From contig NZ_BGOW01000002.1 in NCBI RefSeq assembly GCF_003851125.1, positions 1-64,000 on the forward strand: a stretch of 64,000 nucleotides of DNA, read 5' to 3'. This stretch comes from Sulfuriferula multivorans (GTDB lineage Bacteria; Pseudomonadota; Gammaproteobacteria; Burkholderiales; Sulfuriferulaceae). Position 1 is the first letter of the stretch. Each line of letters begins with the position of its first letter. Shown here one piece after another: positions 54,742 to 64,000 of this stretch. The translations under genes were made by a program, and so were the position numbers. The notes under the pieces are model-generated. The model worked only from the letters and a program-made list of their open reading frames with translations. It did not search any database and was not told where the DNA came from.

Positions 54742-56598
54742 ATGCGGGCGGCAAGTACTCCGGCGGGAACCCTTCGGGGTTCCATGGCCGATGAATTAGA
54801 GTTATACAAGCGTTACCTCAAAGCGCTCAGCAGTGTCGCTGAGGTTTTGCTGGAAGGAACCAGCGAACAAAACCTGACTGAAGTACTGCAGCTATTGGTC
54901 GCAAACTCTGGAATAGACTGTTGCGCACTATTCCTGAACAAGCCCGAAAAAAACGCACAAGGCGCCAAACTTTACTGCACGTGGTCGTCTGCCGAAGCAG
55001 TGAGTCAATTATCCGATTTCATGCAGTTCCGGGATATCGATTATCAAAAGTACCCGCTGCTTTTCGATACATTGCATGCGGGCATGGTGTTTTCCAAAAA
55101 TATCGCGGAATTACCGATCGAGGAAGCCACGCTCTTTGGCACGCAACAAATCCATACCGCATTGTGCATACCATTGCTCATGCAGGACAAAATGGAAGGT
55201 TTTCTCGGCCTCTTTAGCCGGAATGAATCGCGCAACTGGCTGCCCATAGAGGTGAGTGTGTTGTGCGCGATAACCAATAGTCTCGCGCTCGCACTGGTCC
55301 GCAAACGTGCTGAGCAAAACCTGGAAGCTAGCAGCGAGCGGTTGAAGGCATTGGTCGGCGCAACCGAAGACATGATTATCGAATATGATCTCAATGGTCA
55401 TATCGTCAATGTGTGGTCCGATAACAGTTCCTTTTCCATTGGTCTGGCTTCGGGCATTGCCGGCTTGACATTGGAACAGGCATTGCCCGATGACATGACC
55501 CAGGCAATCCGGCGAGCCACACCGAAATTGCTGGCTGGCAGCAATCGTGAAACCTTTGAATTCACGCTCAACATCGACAGCACAGATCGTTTTTTTCTGG
55601 GCAGATTACAAATGCTGCCTTCAGAAACAGGCCAAACCAGAAACATCGTGGCGCTGATACGCGACATTACCGAATTGATGCGAGAAGAAGCACAGCGCCT
55701 GTCCATGCTGGAAACGCTTAATCTGCTCGAAGAAGCCATTATCGATCTCTCTCTTGATGGCCTGCTGCTTAATTTCAGCGGCGCCTGGAACAAACTGCTG
55801 GATTTGCCCAGCGGACACACCAATGACCATCTCGGGAAACCGCTGATTGATTTTGTTTACCAGGACGACCGCCCTGCGCTTGTTTCAGCTATTCATCTAT
55901 TGGCCTCCGGCAAGAAACATTCCGAGGCGGTTCGTTTTCGTCTTTTGCAAGGCCAGGATCCTGTCTGGATCGAAGCACACTTGCTTGCACACCATTCTCT
56001 GCAAGGACAGATCACCGCACTGCGCGGCGTTCTGCGCGACATCACCTCCAGCTATTTACAGGAGCGGCGCATTACCCAGATGGCATTGCATGATGCGCTG
56101 ACCCAGTTGCCCAACCGTATTCTGCTGGAAGAGCACCTGCAACAATCCATTGCCCGCGCACAGCGCGGAAATGAAAAAGTCGCATTGGGATTTATCGACG
56201 TCGACTATTTCAAGCATATCAACGACACCTTGGGACACAAAGCCGGCGACATCGTACTCGTTACGTTAAGCAAACGCCTGCAGTCCGTGCTCAGAGAGAT
56301 AGACACGCTGTCGCGCTGGGGAGGCGATGAGTTTGTTGTATTGTTGCCCGATGCCAGCAGCGAACATGACATCCGCAGAATTGCGGAACGCATGCGCAAA
56401 GTAGCCCTTAAAAGTATCGACCTGGACGGCATTGAGACCAAGATTACACTCAGCATCGGCCTGGCAATTTATCCGGATGATGCAGATAGCTCGGAAACAC
56501 TGATGAGCATGGCGGATCACACCATGTTCCACGCCAAAAGTGTCGGGCGCAACAATGTGCAGTTTTTCCAGGACATCCGCGCAACCCTGAAACGCTAA
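54742..56598 (+). CDS. GAF-PAS-PAS-GGDEF diguanylate cyclase
   Basis: 618 residues from the ATG at 54742 (604 from the ATG at 54784). Order: GAF domain (about 25-205; IDCCALFLNKP, IPLLMQDKMEGFLGLFSRNE), PAS (about 210-325), PAS with PAC-type end (about 335-455), GGDEF (about 455-618). The active motif is RWGGDEFVVLLP and an intact inhibitory I-site REID lies five residues before it, so the enzyme should make c-di-GMP and be product-inhibited. No membrane segment; it likely senses a cytoplasmic signal. No EAL domain. Confidence 0.93.
   Translation: MRAASTPAGTLRGSMADELELYKRYLKALSSVAEVLLEGTSEQNLTEVLQLLVANSGIDCCALFLNKPEKNAQGAKLYCTWSSAEAVSQLSDFMQFRDIDYQKYPLLFDTLHAGMVFSKNIAELPIEEATLFGTQQIHTALCIPLLMQDKMEGFLGLFSRNESRNWLPIEVSVLCAITNSLALALVRKRAEQNLEASSERLKALVGATEDMIIEYDLNGHIVNVWSDNSSFSIGLASGIAGLTLEQALPDDMTQAIRRATPKLLAGSNRETFEFTLNIDSTDRFFLGRLQMLPSETGQTRNIVALIRDITELMREEAQRLSMLETLNLLEEAIIDLSLDGLLLNFSGAWNKLLDLPSGHTNDHLGKPLIDFVYQDDRPALVSAIHLLASGKKHSEAVRFRLLQGQDPVWIEAHLLAHHSLQGQITALRGVLRDITSSYLQERRITQMALHDALTQLPNRILLEEHLQQSIARAQRGNEKVALGFIDVDYFKHINDTLGHKAGDIVLVTLSKRLQSVLREIDTLSRWGGDEFVVLLPDASSEHDIRRIAERMRKVALKSIDLDGIETKITLSIGLAIYPDDADSSETLMSMADHTMFHAKSVGRNNVQFFQDIRATLKR
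54766..54783 (+). promoter_or_regulatory. UUCG tetraloop hairpin at start of diguanylate cyclase gene
   Basis: GGAACCC-TTCG-GGGTTCC: a perfect 7-base stem closed by a C-TTCG-G tetraloop, one of the most stable small RNA folds, ending one base before the ATG at 54784. It lies within the first codons if translation starts at 54742, or masks the ribosome site if it starts at 54784. Confidence 0.6.
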
Positions 56599-59279: not shown

Positions 59280-59388
59280 CCTTGACGTTGGGTTTTGGCT
59301 TGACCGGATAGGGTGTTTTAACCGATCATAGCAGAGTTTGTATTACCTAAAATCAGTCCGGGCTCAAGCTCTTGCAAGGAAGAAATAC

Positions 59389-60348
59389 ATGAAACTGGAA
59401 GATAAAAAGCGCGTGCTGCGCGAAATGGTGTTGCACCGCCGCTTTGAAGAGCGCTGCTATCAGGCCTATATCGAACGCAAAATCGGTGGCTTTCTGCACC
59501 TCTACCCCGGTCAGGAAGCCTGCTGCAACGGCGTGATGGAAGCGGCCCGCCCCGGACACGATTATGTCATCACCGGCTACCGCGATCATATCCACGCCAT
59601 CAAATGCGGTTCCGACCCCAAGGCCGTCATGGCCGAGCTGTACGGCAAGGAAACCGGTTCCTCCAAAGGACGCGGCGGCTCCATGCACATCTTTGATGTG
59701 GCGCATCGCTTCATGGGCGGTTACGCCCTGGTTGGCGGTCCGTTCCCCCTTGCTGCCGGCATTGCCAAAGGCATTCAGATGAAAGGCGGCGACGAAATTT
59801 CCATCTGCTTTCTGGGTGACGCCGCCAATAACCAGGGGGTGTTCCACGAAACCCTGAACATGGCCGCATTATGGAAACTGCCGGTGTTGTTCGTGTGTGA
59901 AAACAACCAATATGGTATCGGCACCTCGATTGACCGCTCCACCGCCGTGCTCGACCAGTTCAAACGCGTATGCGGCTATGGCATCGAATCGGCTCAGTGC
60001 GACGGACAGGATATCGACGTCGTATATGAACACGCGCGCAAAGCCGTGGATTATGTGCGCAGCCGCAAGGGGCCGTATTTCCTTGAGTTGATGACCTACC
60101 GTTATCGCGGCCACTCGATGTCCGATTCACGCGGCTACCGCACGCGCGAAGAAGAAGAACAATGGAAACAGCGCGACCCCATCAACATCCTGCGTGATCG
60201 CCTGATTGACGCCGGCGCGCTGACCATGGACGACTATAACGCCATGGAAAAAGACACTGACGCCTATATCGAAAACGAAGTGATCAAGTTCGCCGAGGAA
60301 TCGCCGGAACCGGATGTGGCAGACCTGGAAAAATACGTTTTCGCATAA
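59389..60348 (+). CDS. pdhA: Pyruvate dehydrogenase E1 component, alpha subunit
   Basis: Thiamin-diphosphate enzyme subunit of an alpha2-beta2 E1. 319 residues from MKLEDKKRVLREMVLHRRFE (59389), which has AGGA nine bases upstream; an in-frame start 17 codons earlier is less likely. ThDP motif reads GDAANNQG...ENNQYGIG, where most E1-alpha proteins have GDGA-NQG. Phosphorylation-loop region YRYRGHSMSDSRGYRTREEEE is conserved. Forms a transcription unit with pdhB and the E2-E3 fusion. Substrate pyruvate is most likely; acetoin or branched-chain acids are not excluded. Confidence 0.9.
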   Translation: MKLEDKKRVLREMVLHRRFEERCYQAYIERKIGGFLHLYPGQEACCNGVMEAARPGHDYVITGYRDHIHAIKCGSDPKAVMAELYGKETGSSKGRGGSMHIFDVAHRFMGGYALVGGPFPLAAGIAKGIQMKGGDEISICFLGDAANNQGVFHETLNMAALWKLPVLFVCENNQYGIGTSIDRSTAVLDQFKRVCGYGIESAQCDGQDIDVVYEHARKAVDYVRSRKGPYFLELMTYRYRGHSMSDSRGYRTREEEEQWKQRDPINILRDRLIDAGALTMDDYNAMEKDTDAYIENEVIKFAEESPEPDVADLEKYVFA

Positions 60349-61553: not shown

Positions 61554-64000
61554 ATGTCATCACATTACGTCATTACCATGCCGCAGTTGTCCGACACCAT
61601 GACCGAAGGGGTTGTGGTGACTTGGGAGAAACAGGTCGGCGACAAAGTCGAGCGCGGCGATATTGTCGCCACTGTCGAAACCGACAAAGCCATCATGGAC
61701 GTGGAAGTATTCAAAGCCGGTTATCTGGCCGGCCCGTTGGCGGAAGTCGGCGCCACTGTTACTGTCAGCGGCGCACTGGGCTATATCACCGATACCCTGG
61801 GCGATCTCGCCATTGGTGAAGGCGAGGTTGTCACCGAACAGGCGGCCACCGAGATGATCCCGCACCAGGCCGGCATGCCGATTGTCATGCCACAGCTGTC
61901 CGACACCATGACCGAAGGCATCGTGGTGACCTGGGAAAAAGCCATCGGCGCCGCCCTCAAACGCGGCGACATCGTGGCTACAGTGGAAACCGACAAGGCC
62001 ATCATGGATGTGGAAGTGTTCCAGGAAGGTTTTCTGTCTGGCCCGCTGGCAGGCGTGGGCAGCACGGTGGAAGTGGCGCATCCGATGGCCTTCATCGTCA
62101 GCGACGCCGCTCAGGTGAACAATACCGAAGTCACCGTTTCCGCCGAACACAAGGTGATCGAAAGCCATCACCAGAAAGACAAGACTCCGATCTACGCCGC
62201 GGCGGCCAAATCCACGCCAGCAGCCACTCCCGCAGTGACCCAACCAGGTGCCAAACCGGTGGCCCGTCCGGCCGGTCGTCAGGCCAGCCCCTACGCACGC
62301 AAGTTGGCAGGCGAAATCGGTGTTGATTTGAGCCAGCTGGCCGGTTCCGGTCCGGCCGGCGTGATTGTCGCCCAGGACGTGGCGCGCGCCCGCCCGAGCA
62401 TGGCGCAAGTCGCCCACTCCCTGCCGCAGGTCGAAGTGCCCGGCACTGGCCGCCCCATGTCCTCGATGGAAAAGGCCGTGTCGCACGCGATGACGGCGGC
62501 GCTGACGCTGCCCACCTTCGATGTCACCTTCAACATCAAACCCGAGAAACTCATCGCTGCCGCCAAGGCGCGCAAGGTTTCGGTGACGGTAGCCATCGCC
62601 AAAGCCTGTTCCGTGGCCATGCTGAAGCACCCGATGCTGAACAATTGCTACCAGCCGGTGGACAAAATCGTCGAGCGCAGCAACCACGATTTCGGCGTTG
62701 CCGTCGCTGCCGATGGTGGCGGGCTGGTAGTGCCGATCCTGCACAACATCGAACAGAAATCCCTGGAGCAACTGCAGGCCGAGTGGAGCGACCTGATGCC
62801 GCGCGCCCGCGCCCGCAAGCTGTCGCCCAATGAATACGCCAGCCCGACTTTCACCATCTCCAACATGGGCATGTTCGGCGTCACCCACTTCACCGCCATC
62901 CCCACTCCCGGCATCGCCGCCATCATGGCCATCGCCGCTACCGGGCCGGACGGCATGCCGGTGAACATCACCGGCGATCATCGCGTGGTGAACGGCGCGC
63001 ACGTCGCCGCCTACCTGGCTGATTTGAAGAAAATTATCGAAAACCCGGAAAGCTGGCTGGAAGCAACCGCCACCAACCCGATTCCCGAAGGCGACTGGGA
63101 CTTTCCGGTCATCGTCATCGGCGGCGGTCCCGGCGGCGAAGACTGCGCACGCGACCTGGTCGAGCATGGCGTCAAGGCGGCAATGATCAACAACGCCCCG
63201 CTGCCTGGCGGCGAGTGCCTGTGGCGCGGTTGCATTCCGTCCAAGGCCTGGCGCCACAATGCCGACCTGATGCGCGACCGCGCCCACGACGCGGAAAAAG
63301 GCATCACCGGTACCAATACCCCCAAGCTTGACTGGGCAACACTGGAAACACGCCGCAAGGGCATCCTGCAAACCCGCGGCGAACTGGCGCTGAAAACCGA
63401 CAAGGGCGTCAAAATTGACGTACGCGAAGGCTTTGCCTCCTTTGTCGATGATCACACCATCAAGGTGCAGCCAGCCGGAGGCGAAGCCTACACCCTGCGC
63501 TTCGGCGCTGCAGTGATTGCGCCGGGCGCGCCGCCGTTCGTGCCGCCCATCCCGGGCGCGCTGGAAGGCCTGACCGGCGGCGGCGTGATTACTTCCGACA
63601 CCATCTGGAACCTGCCTGCCCCGCCAAAGAAAATGGCCATCGTAGGCGGCGGCGTCATCGGCGTGGAAATGGCGCAGATTTTCCGCGATTTCGGCACCGA
63701 GATTCTGATGCTGGAAGCCAGGGACCGCATTCTTGCCGAAGTCGAAGAAGAAATCGCCAAGCAGCTCACCGAGCTCCTCAAGCAGGAATTCAGCGTTGTC
63801 ACCAGCGCCAAAATCGGCAGCATTGCCGGTACACCTGGCAAAATGAAACTCGACTACGCCGACGCCGAGGGCAAAACCGCCAGCTTCGATTGCGATTATG
63901 TACTGATGGCTACCGGCAAGCGCCCCGACACCAGCAAGCTCAATCTGGAAGCCGCAGGCGTGCAACTGGATGGTGCGGCGATCAAGGTCGATACCCGTGG
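61554..64000 (+). CDS. Fused pyruvate dehydrogenase E2-E3 (dihydrolipoyl acetyltransferase / dihydrolipoyl dehydrogenase), C-terminus cut by window edge
   Basis: One open frame of 815 codons from the ATG at 61554 to the window end. Parts: lipoyl domain 1 with lipoyl-Lys45 (ETDKAIMDVEVF), lipoyl domain 2 with Lys148 (same motif), peripheral-subunit-binding domain (about 242-280; ASPYARKLAGEIGVDLSQL), acetyltransferase core (about 300-505), a roughly 15-residue join (NPESWLEATATNPIPEGDWD), then E3 with FAD motif GGGPGG (523-528), redox disulfide C555-LWRG-C560 and NAD motif GGGVIG (698-703). The E2 catalytic motif reads DHRVVNG (H476, N480) instead of DHRxxDG. About 170 residues of E3 are expected beyond the edge. 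Free E2 and E3 genes would normally be separate. Confidence 0.93.
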   Translation, partial: MSSHYVITMPQLSDTMTEGVVVTWEKQVGDKVERGDIVATVETDKAIMDVEVFKAGYLAGPLAEVGATVTVSGALGYITDTLGDLAIGEGEVVTEQAATEMIPHQAGMPIVMPQLSDTMTEGIVVTWEKAIGAALKRGDIVATVETDKAIMDVEVFQEGFLSGPLAGVGSTVEVAHPMAFIVSDAAQVNNTEVTVSAEHKVIESHHQKDKTPIYAAAAKSTPAATPAVTQPGAKPVARPAGRQASPYARKLAGEIGVDLSQLAGSGPAGVIVAQDVARARPSMAQVAHSLPQVEVPGTGRPMSSMEKAVSHAMTAALTLPTFDVTFNIKPEKLIAAAKARKVSVTVAIAKACSVAMLKHPMLNNCYQPVDKIVERSNHDFGVAVAADGGGLVVPILHNIEQKSLEQLQAEWSDLMPRARARKLSPNEYASPTFTISNMGMFGVTHFTAIPTPGIAAIMAIAATGPDGMPVNITGDHRVVNGAHVAAYLADLKKIIENPESWLEATATNPIPEGDWDFPVIVIGGGPGGEDCARDLVEHGVKAAMINNAPLPGGECLWRGCIPSKAWRHNADLMRDRAHDAEKGITGTNTPKLDWATLETRRKGILQTRGELALKTDKGVKIDVREGFASFVDDHTIKVQPAGGEAYTLRFGAAVIAPGAPPFVPPIPGALEGLTGGGVITSDTIWNLPAPPKKMAIVGGGVIGVEMAQIFRDFGTEILMLEARDRILAEVEEEIAKQLTELLKQEFSVVTSAKIGSIAGTPGKMKLDYADAEGKTASFDCDYVLMATGKRPDTSKLNLEAAGVQLDGAAIKVDTR

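What the first reader, a model, noticed from the sequence alone, without database searches (positions are those of the whole stretch)
61554..64000. E2 and E3 of pyruvate dehydrogenase fused in one polypeptide
The frame runs without stop from two lipoyl domains and the acetyltransferase core straight into a dihydrolipoyl dehydrogenase with its FAD motif, redox disulfide and NAD motif. E3 enzymes with one lipoyl domain in front are well known, but a whole E2 core joined to E3 would change how the multienzyme particle is built, because E3 would be present one per E2 and cover the core rather than bind reversibly. The peripheral-subunit-binding domain, normally the docking site for E1 or E3, is still present and may be left for E1.
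Basis: partly seen in the sequence, partly recalled or inferred. Interest (0 to 1): 0.72.

Follow-up and report, generated by a model that had tools for sequence, protein, structure and literature searches.

The report
Fused E2-E3 pyruvate dehydrogenase subunit
In this bacterium and many of its relatives two separate parts of the pyruvate dehydrogenase machine are made as one protein, which seems to have replaced the free third enzyme that other metabolic machines normally borrow.

Summary
One 984-residue frame (window 61554 to contig base 64505, past the window) carries two lipoyl domains, a subunit-binding domain (PSBD), the acetyltransferase core and a complete E3, behind E1alpha and E1beta genes. 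It is neither a sequencing error nor rare: 19 of 200 genomes drawn from the order and 77 of 369 from the class match it. The open-access paper searches made showed no description.

(1) Free E3 is often gone: a standalone dihydrolipoyl dehydrogenase over NCBI's cut-off is in 21 of 21 chosen genomes without the fusion, in 18 of 54 with it, and in none of the 19 of the window's order. (2) In the 8 examined genomes that have the fusion, lack that E3 and keep 2-oxoglutarate dehydrogenase, the latter's E2 has no PSBD (0 of 8, against 38 of 38 others; one or two losses). A published study calls this domain preserved in bacteria.

Most likely the fused protein is the E2/E3 core of pyruvate dehydrogenase and also the E3 of glycine cleavage and 2-oxoglutarate dehydrogenase. 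That service, enzyme activity and the shape of the particle are inferred.

The parts
59338..60348 (+). E1 alpha gene (pdhA type); frame opens at TTG 59338, first ATG 59389
   Evidence: TIGR03182 413 bits against a cut-off of 394; Pfam E1_dh; upstream in 70 of 80 relatives, 9 of the other 10 being cut by a contig end
60472..61452 (+). E1 beta gene (pdhB type)
   Evidence: NF006667 358 bits against a cut-off of 321; Transket_pyr and Transketolase_C; upstream in 78 of 80 relatives, the other 2 cut by a contig end
61554..64000 (+). E2-E3 fusion gene; continues beyond the window, last codon ends at G000:C2:64505, 984 residues in all
   Evidence: open frame; Pfam domains; 19 one-frame full-length matches in the order, this one included
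61572..61778 (+). lipoyl domain 1 (ETDKAIMD motif)
   Evidence: Pfam Biotin_lipoyl residues 7-75
61881..62093 (+). lipoyl domain 2 (approximate limits, residues 110-180)
   Evidence: second Biotin_lipoyl stretch; second ETDKAIMD at residues 145-152; strands in the AF2 model of the 90% identical L041 protein
62280..62381 (+). peripheral subunit-binding domain, Arg of the GR(I/V) motif replaced by Val
   Evidence: Pfam E3_binding residues 243-276; 0 Arg in 56 rows of A2 and in 19 rows of A1 at that position
62451..63059 (+). E2 acetyltransferase core, active site DHRVVNG at residues 475-481
   Evidence: Pfam 2-oxoacid_dh residues 300-502; Asn invariant in 19 of 19 rows and 56 of 56 rows
63060..63104 (+). 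junction: E2 C-terminus to E3 start, no stop and no in-frame start codon
   Evidence: sequence; script
63105..64000 (+). E3 (dihydrolipoyl dehydrogenase): FAD motif GGGPGG, redox pair C555/C560, NAD motif GGGVIG; the dimerisation domain with H960/E965 lies beyond the window
   Evidence: Pfam Pyr_redox_2 518-843 and Pyr_redox_dim 865-970; model of the L041 relative matches solved E3s, TM-score by target up to 0.89

Best explanation
The gene encodes a genuine, old fusion of the E2 and E3 subunits of pyruvate dehydrogenase, made from a gene set E1alpha - E1beta - E2E3. E1 acetylates the two lipoyl domains, the E2 core passes the acetyl group to CoA, and the same lipoyl domains are re-oxidised by the E3 at the C-terminus of the same chain with NAD+. 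The subunit-binding domain no longer needs to dock E3 and probably holds E1 alone. In about two thirds of the fusion genomes examined, including this one, the usual standalone E3 is missing, so the fused E3 most likely also re-oxidises the lipoyl groups of the glycine cleavage H-protein and, where present, of 2-oxoglutarate dehydrogenase, whose E2 has lost its E3-docking domain. Shown: fusion, conservation, gene order, missing standalone E3 family, missing docking domain. Inferred: enzyme activity, E1-only docking, service in trans, and the shape of the particle.
For: Frame and domains. 19 of 200 order genomes have it full length in one frame; 77 of 369 class genomes match at E <= 1e-150, 56 of 272 genera. 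Named hosts include Thiobacillus thioparus DSM 505, T. denitrificans RG and Sulfuriferula MAGs. E1beta lies upstream in 78 of 80 loci and E1alpha in 70 of 80. E2 and E3 halves diverge together, r = 0.90 over pairs of 56 rows. E3 redox pair invariant, C-terminal His/Glu nearly so. Standalone Lpd over the TIGR01350 cut-off: 21 of 21 chosen non-fusion genomes, 0 of 19 order fusions, 18 of 35 chosen class fusions. SucB in 46 of these 75 genomes: 18 of 18 fusion+Lpd, 20 of 21 non-fusion, 8 of 36 fusion/no-Lpd; Pfam E3_binding in 18 of 18, 20 of 20 and 0 of 8 of these. Glycine dehydrogenase P-protein domain in 34 of the 36. In the single-contig genome G043, which has a SucB without docking domain, the only other E3-like protein at E <= 1e-60 is a mercuric reductase; the same holds for G008.
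Against: No activity, expression or oligomer data. Both halves score below NCBI's equivalog cut-offs (E2 297 against 445 bits, E3 370 against 409), so acetyl specificity and NAD+ use are inferred. The E2 active-site Asp is Asn in every fusion aligned; Ala at the matching place in E. coli E2o leaves about 9.5% activity (PMC5986005, passage), so catalysis may be altered. Other E3-like flavoproteins exist in several genomes: own C15:8960 (380 bits, near dsrO), the CVPKK proteins of the window's genus, G167's FAD oxidoreductase (389 bits), and G057's NF004939 protein over its own cut-off; some may do E3 work, and TIGR01350 may miss divergent E3s, as it does the fused one. The 8 docking-domain losses need only one or two events on the SucB tree. 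G057 and G008 lack the P-protein. The comparison genomes were chosen by me, not at random. One locus (L049) has E1beta and 4.9 kb more upstream but no E1alpha hit.
Confidence: 0.72

Rival explanations
1. The fused E3 serves pyruvate dehydrogenase only; a different, divergent or misnamed flavoprotein is the E3 for glycine cleavage and 2-oxoglutarate dehydrogenase.
For: Own genome has E3-like proteins at C15:8960 (380 bits) and C3:8106 (319 bits) with the redox pair and a C-terminal His-Pro-x-x-x-Glu; G057 has an NF004939 protein that NCBI names dihydrolipoyl dehydrogenase; G167 has an FAD oxidoreductase of 389 bits.
Against: None of these is common to the 8 genomes concerned; G043 and G008 have only mercuric reductases besides the fusion at E <= 1e-60. 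The own C15 protein lies between a cobB-like gene and cysG, with dsrO nearby, which points to sulfur metabolism.
Confidence: 0.25
2. A frameshift or lost stop codon in the assembly, or translation restart, hides two normal genes.
For: E2 and E3 genes are often adjacent: the other listed order matches that start before query residue 360 run through both halves and contain one or more stops. 11 of 70 relatives scanned have a start codon with a Shine-Dalgarno-like 4-mer in the junction.
Against: 75 of 77 class genomes with a match, 19 of 19 order genomes and 77 of 80 named contigs are open over the region; the window protein has no in-frame start codon at the junction.
Confidence: 0.02
3. The protein belongs to another 2-oxoacid dehydrogenase (for example acetoin or branched-chain), not pyruvate dehydrogenase.
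For: E2 and E3 halves lie below the PDH and Lpd equivalog cut-offs.
Against: E1alpha passes the cut-off of a pyruvate dehydrogenase equivalog and E1beta that of a PDH subfamily model; the best E2-type NCBIfam score is the mitochondrial-type PDH model; among the fusion's own-genome matches the only other E2 is SucB. A homodimeric E1 (AceE) was not searched for.
Confidence: 0.08

Closest known systems
Actinobacterial OdhA/KGD two-in-one 2-oxoglutarate dehydrogenase (PMC10415282, passages)
   Same: Two components of a 2-oxoacid dehydrogenase on one chain; works with lipoyl groups and E3 of pyruvate dehydrogenase.
   Different: OdhA joins E2o to E1o; here E2p is joined to E3. OdhA depends on lipoyl groups supplied in trans; here the chain has its own two lipoyl domains.
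E3 with an N-terminal lipoyl domain (e.g. the 602-aa chain 5u25 listed; architecture recalled)
   Same: E3 covalently linked to a lipoyl domain.
   Different: There the lipoyl domain alone is attached; here the whole E2 with subunit-binding domain and acetyltransferase core precedes E3.
Mitochondrial pyruvate dehydrogenase E2 (8piu, 60 chains; best solved match of the E2 half; that it is mammalian is recalled)
   Same: Two lipoyl domains, PSBD with GxGP, same core.
   Different: Separate E3; against it the fusion core lacks about 14 residues before the active-site strand, the Asp of HRVVDG is Asn, and the PSBD lacks the Arg of GRI.
Eukaryotic 2-oxoglutarate dehydrogenase E2 without PSBD, E3 recruited by MRPS36 (PMC9974300, abstract and passages)
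   Same: An E2o without E3-docking domain, with a Pro/Ala-rich linker in its place.
   Different: Here it is bacterial, no adaptor was looked for or found, and the lack goes with the lack of a free E3. The paper says the PSBD is preserved across prokaryotic E2o.

Membership tests
Pyruvate dehydrogenase E2 (dihydrolipoyl acetyltransferase) | lipoyl domain(s), PSBD and acyltransferase core in order | tested here: met
   Pfam
Pyruvate dehydrogenase E2 (dihydrolipoyl acetyltransferase) | NCBIfam equivalog cut-off TIGR01349 (445 bits) | tested here: not met
   297 bits
Pyruvate dehydrogenase E2 (dihydrolipoyl acetyltransferase) | active-site HxxxDG | tested here: not met
   His kept, Asp is Asn in 56 of 56 rows and 19 of 19 rows
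Pyruvate dehydrogenase E2 (dihydrolipoyl acetyltransferase) | acetyl transfer to CoA; 24-mer or 60-mer core | not testable with these tools
   needs protein
Dihydrolipoyl dehydrogenase (E3) | FAD motif, CxxxxC redox pair, NAD motif, C-terminal His/Glu | tested here: met
   A1 and A2 alignments; fold match TM 0.89 by target
Dihydrolipoyl dehydrogenase (E3) | NCBIfam equivalog cut-off TIGR01350 (408.8 bits) | tested here: not met
   369.8 bits
Dihydrolipoyl dehydrogenase (E3) | separate polypeptide docking on a PSBD | tested here: not met
   fused
alpha2beta2-type pyruvate dehydrogenase complex | E1alpha and E1beta genes beside E2 | tested here: met
OdhA/KGD-type fusion | E2 core fused to E1 | tested here: not met
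   E1 subunits are separate genes
PSBD-less E2o (known from eukaryotes) | SucB lacking E3_binding | tested here: met
   own SucB and 7 others, 0 of 8 with E3_binding at E <= 0.01

The most novel reading that the evidence does not exclude
The fused chain joins a domain that is trimeric in its relatives (E2 core) to one that is dimeric (E3) by a short linker at the E2 C-terminus, the region that in actinobacteria decides whether trimers join. The particle may therefore be a new kind of self-assembling cage in which E3 dimers bridge or crown E2 trimers, and this single particle is the only E3 of the cell: a hub on which pyruvate dehydrogenase, glycine cleavage, 2-oxoglutarate dehydrogenase and perhaps the lipoate-dependent sulfur oxidation carrier LbpA are all re-oxidised.
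Probability: 0.25. Interest if true: 0.82.

Novelty: new variant of a known kind. Interest (0 to 1): 0.62.

Why it matters
E3 is a textbook shared, exchangeable enzyme: one free dimer docks on several lipoyl complexes through the PSBD. Here a conserved lineage has welded it into one complex, and in the genomes examined the docking domain of the other complex is missing where the free enzyme is missing. That gives a natural experiment on what the PSBD is for, on whether an E2 core can carry a full complement of E3, and on how sulfur-oxidising autotrophs supply E3 to glycine cleavage and perhaps LbpA. It also means that scans with the standard Lpd model report these genomes as lacking E3, and that the statement that bacterial E2o keeps the PSBD needs a correction.

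Tried and rejected
Sequencing error or hidden stop: rejected. Separate translation of E3 from an internal start: no conserved start (64 of 70 rows have some in-frame ATG/GTG/TTG, 11 of 70 one with a Shine-Dalgarno-like 4-mer, the window protein none). A fusion on plasmids: tblastn against PLSDB gave 33 records, all under 60% identity; the 5 rows seen are 27-30% identical, two of them adjacent separate E2 and lpdA genes, the others without annotation. Own C15 E3-like protein as the general E3: not found in the other seven genomes concerned at E <= 1e-60 by place and motif, and near dsrO and a cobB-like gene. Eight independent PSBD losses: not claimed; the SucB tree needs one or two changes (L170 dropped for lack of the cutting motif, so 45 of 46 rows). 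Phylum-wide search: 3 of 398, all from the window's order; which classes the other genomes belong to is mostly not listed, so absence outside the class is only suggested. The placing of E2 against E3 in the AF2 model is not used: pTM 0.51; no complex was modelled and the second structure job was not used. Paper searches that showed no account of an E2-E3 fusion: 0 papers; 3; 6; 20 of 21 listed; 12 of 36 listed; 3; 15 of 393 listed; 10 of 49 listed; listings only, open-access library; the Thiobacillus genome papers themselves were not read. Passages were read in PMC6270654, PMC9974300, PMC5986005, PMC6067878, PMC5178258 and PMC10415282. Control genomes were chosen by me from complete ones: 14 of 181 non-fusion in the order draw, 7 of 292 non-matching in the class draw; fusion genomes: all 19 of the order draw, 35 of the 76 others of the class draw. 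In the junction scan 70 of 75 rows carried both motifs; five (L028, L041, L070, L112, L120) were left out. The GR(I/V) Arg in SucB: a motif search found R in 31 of 33 SucBs and no motif in 5 of 38.
Full report
WHAT IS THERE. The frame at 61554 is open to the window end and, read in the assembly, its last codon ends at contig base 64505, with the stop at 64506-64508: 984 residues, 103.9 kDa. Pfam finds two lipoyl domains, the E3_binding domain (PSBD, residues 243-276), the acyltransferase core (300-502), and E3 with its dimerisation domain (518-970). E1alpha and E1beta lie upstream and pass the NCBIfam cut-offs of a PDH equivalog (E1alpha) and a PDH subfamily model (E1beta). Both halves of the fusion fall below their equivalog cut-offs (E2 297 of 445 bits, E3 370 of 409), so they are divergent members. 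Between them there is no stop and, in the window protein, no in-frame start codon.

HOW COMMON. With the 19-row profile A1, 77 of 369 genomes drawn from the class matched at E <= 1e-150, in 56 of 272 genera; by the match ranges, 75 of these 77 have one frame across the junction. Several matches begin near residue 108 in frames of about 890-935 aa, which suggests a single lipoyl domain. A phylum draw gave 3 of 398, all from the window's order. The named collection gave 443 relatives, of which the best 80 were kept: Sulfuriferula, Thiobacillus (T. thioparus DSM 505, T. denitrificans RG), Hydrogenophilaceae and Gammaproteobacteria MAGs, among others. In these, 77 of 80 have no stop in the matched region, E1beta is upstream in 78 of 80 and E1alpha in 70 of 80; the misses are contig ends, except L049, which has E1beta and 4.9 kb more upstream but no E1alpha hit. 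Pairwise distances of the two halves correlate at r = 0.90 over 56 rows, as expected if they have been inherited together.

THE PROTEIN. In 56 of 56 rows of A2 the E2 active site reads DHRVxNG: the His is kept, the Asp of HxxxDG is Asn. In E. coli E2o, Asp379Ala at what I take to be the matching place leaves about 9.5% of complex activity (PMC5986005, passage), so the change need not be inactivating. The best solved relative of the E2 half is a mitochondrial 60-chain E2 (8piu); against it the fusion lacks about 14 residues just before the active-site strand, and its alignment runs to three residues from that chain's end before the linker to E3; from the Trp of the E2 end to the FAD motif there are 19-45 residues in 70 rows. 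In the PSBD the Arg of the GR(I/V) motif, present in 8piu and in 31 of 33 SucBs in which the motif was found, is absent in 56 of 56 rows: Val 45, Ala 4, Glu 4, Leu, Ile and Met 1 each. That this Arg takes part in E3 docking is recalled; that charged PSBD residues make the contact with E3 is in PMC9974300 and PMC6270654 (passages). The E3 redox pair is invariant and the C-terminal His/Glu nearly so. An AlphaFold2 model of the 90% identical L041 protein has mean pLDDT 80 and pTM 0.51; its E3 half matches solved E3s with a TM-score by target of up to 0.89, but the placing of the domains is not reliable.

FREE E3 IS OFTEN GONE. TIGR01350 over its cut-off was found in 21 of 21 chosen genomes without the fusion, in 0 of 19 order genomes with it and in 18 of 35 chosen class genomes with it; no fused E3 in the list reaches the cut-off, so these 18 have separate genes. 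This genome has none. Yet it has 2-oxoglutarate dehydrogenase E1 and E2 without an lpd beside them, GcvT, GcvH, GcvPA and GcvPB and lipoyl synthase, which imply a need for E3. Of the 36 fusion genomes without a cut-off Lpd, 34 have the glycine dehydrogenase P-protein domain. A paper on Sideroxydans likewise notes that E1 and E2 of its 2-oxoglutarate dehydrogenase stand together without E3 (PMC5178258, passage).

THE DOCKING DOMAIN OF THE OTHER COMPLEX. SucB (TIGR01347) is present in 46 of the 75 genomes: 18 of 18 with fusion and Lpd, 20 of 21 without fusion, 8 of 36 with fusion and no Lpd. Pfam E3_binding is found in 18 of 18 (one of them, G235, cut by a contig end), 20 of 20 and 0 of 8 of these SucBs; the eight have a variable, often Pro/Ala-rich stretch instead. 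So a separate Lpd accompanies the PSBD of SucB even in fusion genomes, and the PSBD is missing where Lpd is missing. The tree of the catalytic domains needs only one or two changes for this, so it is a coincidence of characters in few lineages, not eight independent cases. PMC9974300 (abstract and passages) says that the PSBD is preserved across prokaryotic E2o and absent in eukaryotes, where MRPS36 is proposed to recruit E3; these eight bacterial E2o proteins are exceptions.

WHO IS THE E3. In G043 (one contig) and G008 the only other E3-like proteins at E <= 1e-60 are mercuric reductases. Four genomes of the window's genus have an E3-like protein with CVPKK below the TIGR01350 cut-off (298-334 bits), G167 an FAD oxidoreductase of 389 bits, and G057 a protein over the cut-off of NF004939, which NCBI names dihydrolipoyl dehydrogenase. 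The own C15 protein (380 bits) lies between a cobB-like gene and cysG, with dsrO nearby. The fused E3 is the only candidate common to all eight, but single genomes may use another enzyme. This genome also has three further GCV_H-type proteins, possibly LbpA; [quoted passage not shown]

MECHANISM. Shown: one chain, gene order, conservation, absence of the standalone E3 family, absence of the PSBD in SucB. Inferred: E1 loads the lipoyl domains, the E2 core makes acetyl-CoA, the attached E3 re-oxidises the lipoyl groups; the PSBD holds E1; the E3 also serves glycine cleavage and 2-oxoglutarate dehydrogenase in trans. The nearest known logic is the actinobacterial PDH/ODH supercomplex, where OdhA fuses E2o to E1o and uses lipoyl groups and E3 of pyruvate dehydrogenase, and where a three-residue insertion at the E2p C-terminus keeps E2p trimeric (PMC10415282, passages). 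The fused E3 hangs from that same C-terminus, which is why an unusual particle is worth testing.

NOVELTY. Fusions among these components are a known kind (OdhA; lipoyl-E3, recalled); an E2 core joined to E3 is, as far as the listings show within an open-access library, not described. None of the 25 best of 66 NCBIfam models names the fusion. I call it a new variant of a known kind.

Noticed in passing
L161:8604-10130 (minus), G000 contig C45: SdhE (Pfam Sdh5, residues 2-71) and citrate synthase (125-491) lie in one 508-residue open frame upstream of sucA; possible second fusion or a missing stop.
   Followed up: no
L002:12690-14327 (minus): A mercuric reductase over its cut-offs, with an extra N-terminal part, lies about 6 kb downstream of the fusion gene.
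   Followed up: no
G000:C15:8960-10345 (minus), L007: An E3-like flavoprotein (TIGR01350 380 bits, CIPKK) between a cobB-like gene and cysG, with dsrO nearby; possibly a sulfur-oxidation E3 paralogue.
   Followed up: partly
G000:C3:8106-9449; L226, L227, L228: A 462-467 residue E3-like protein with GGCCLNRGCVPKK or GGTCLNRGCVPKK in 4 genomes of the window's genus, below the TIGR01350 cut-off in each; function unknown.
   Followed up: partly
G000:C15:167334-167669, C15:168278-168628, C3:143168-143530: Three GCV_H-type proteins besides the GcvH at C44, possibly LbpA carriers of the Hdr-like sulfur oxidation pathway.
   Followed up: no
SucB tree: The PSBD-less SucBs of the window's order branch with SucBs of other orders of the class (G506, G254), apart from the 14 non-fusion SucBs of the order.
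   Followed up: no
window 54742-56598 (plus): A 618-residue frame that reads like a sensor protein ending in a diguanylate cyclase (GGDEF) domain, by eye from the translation.
   Followed up: no
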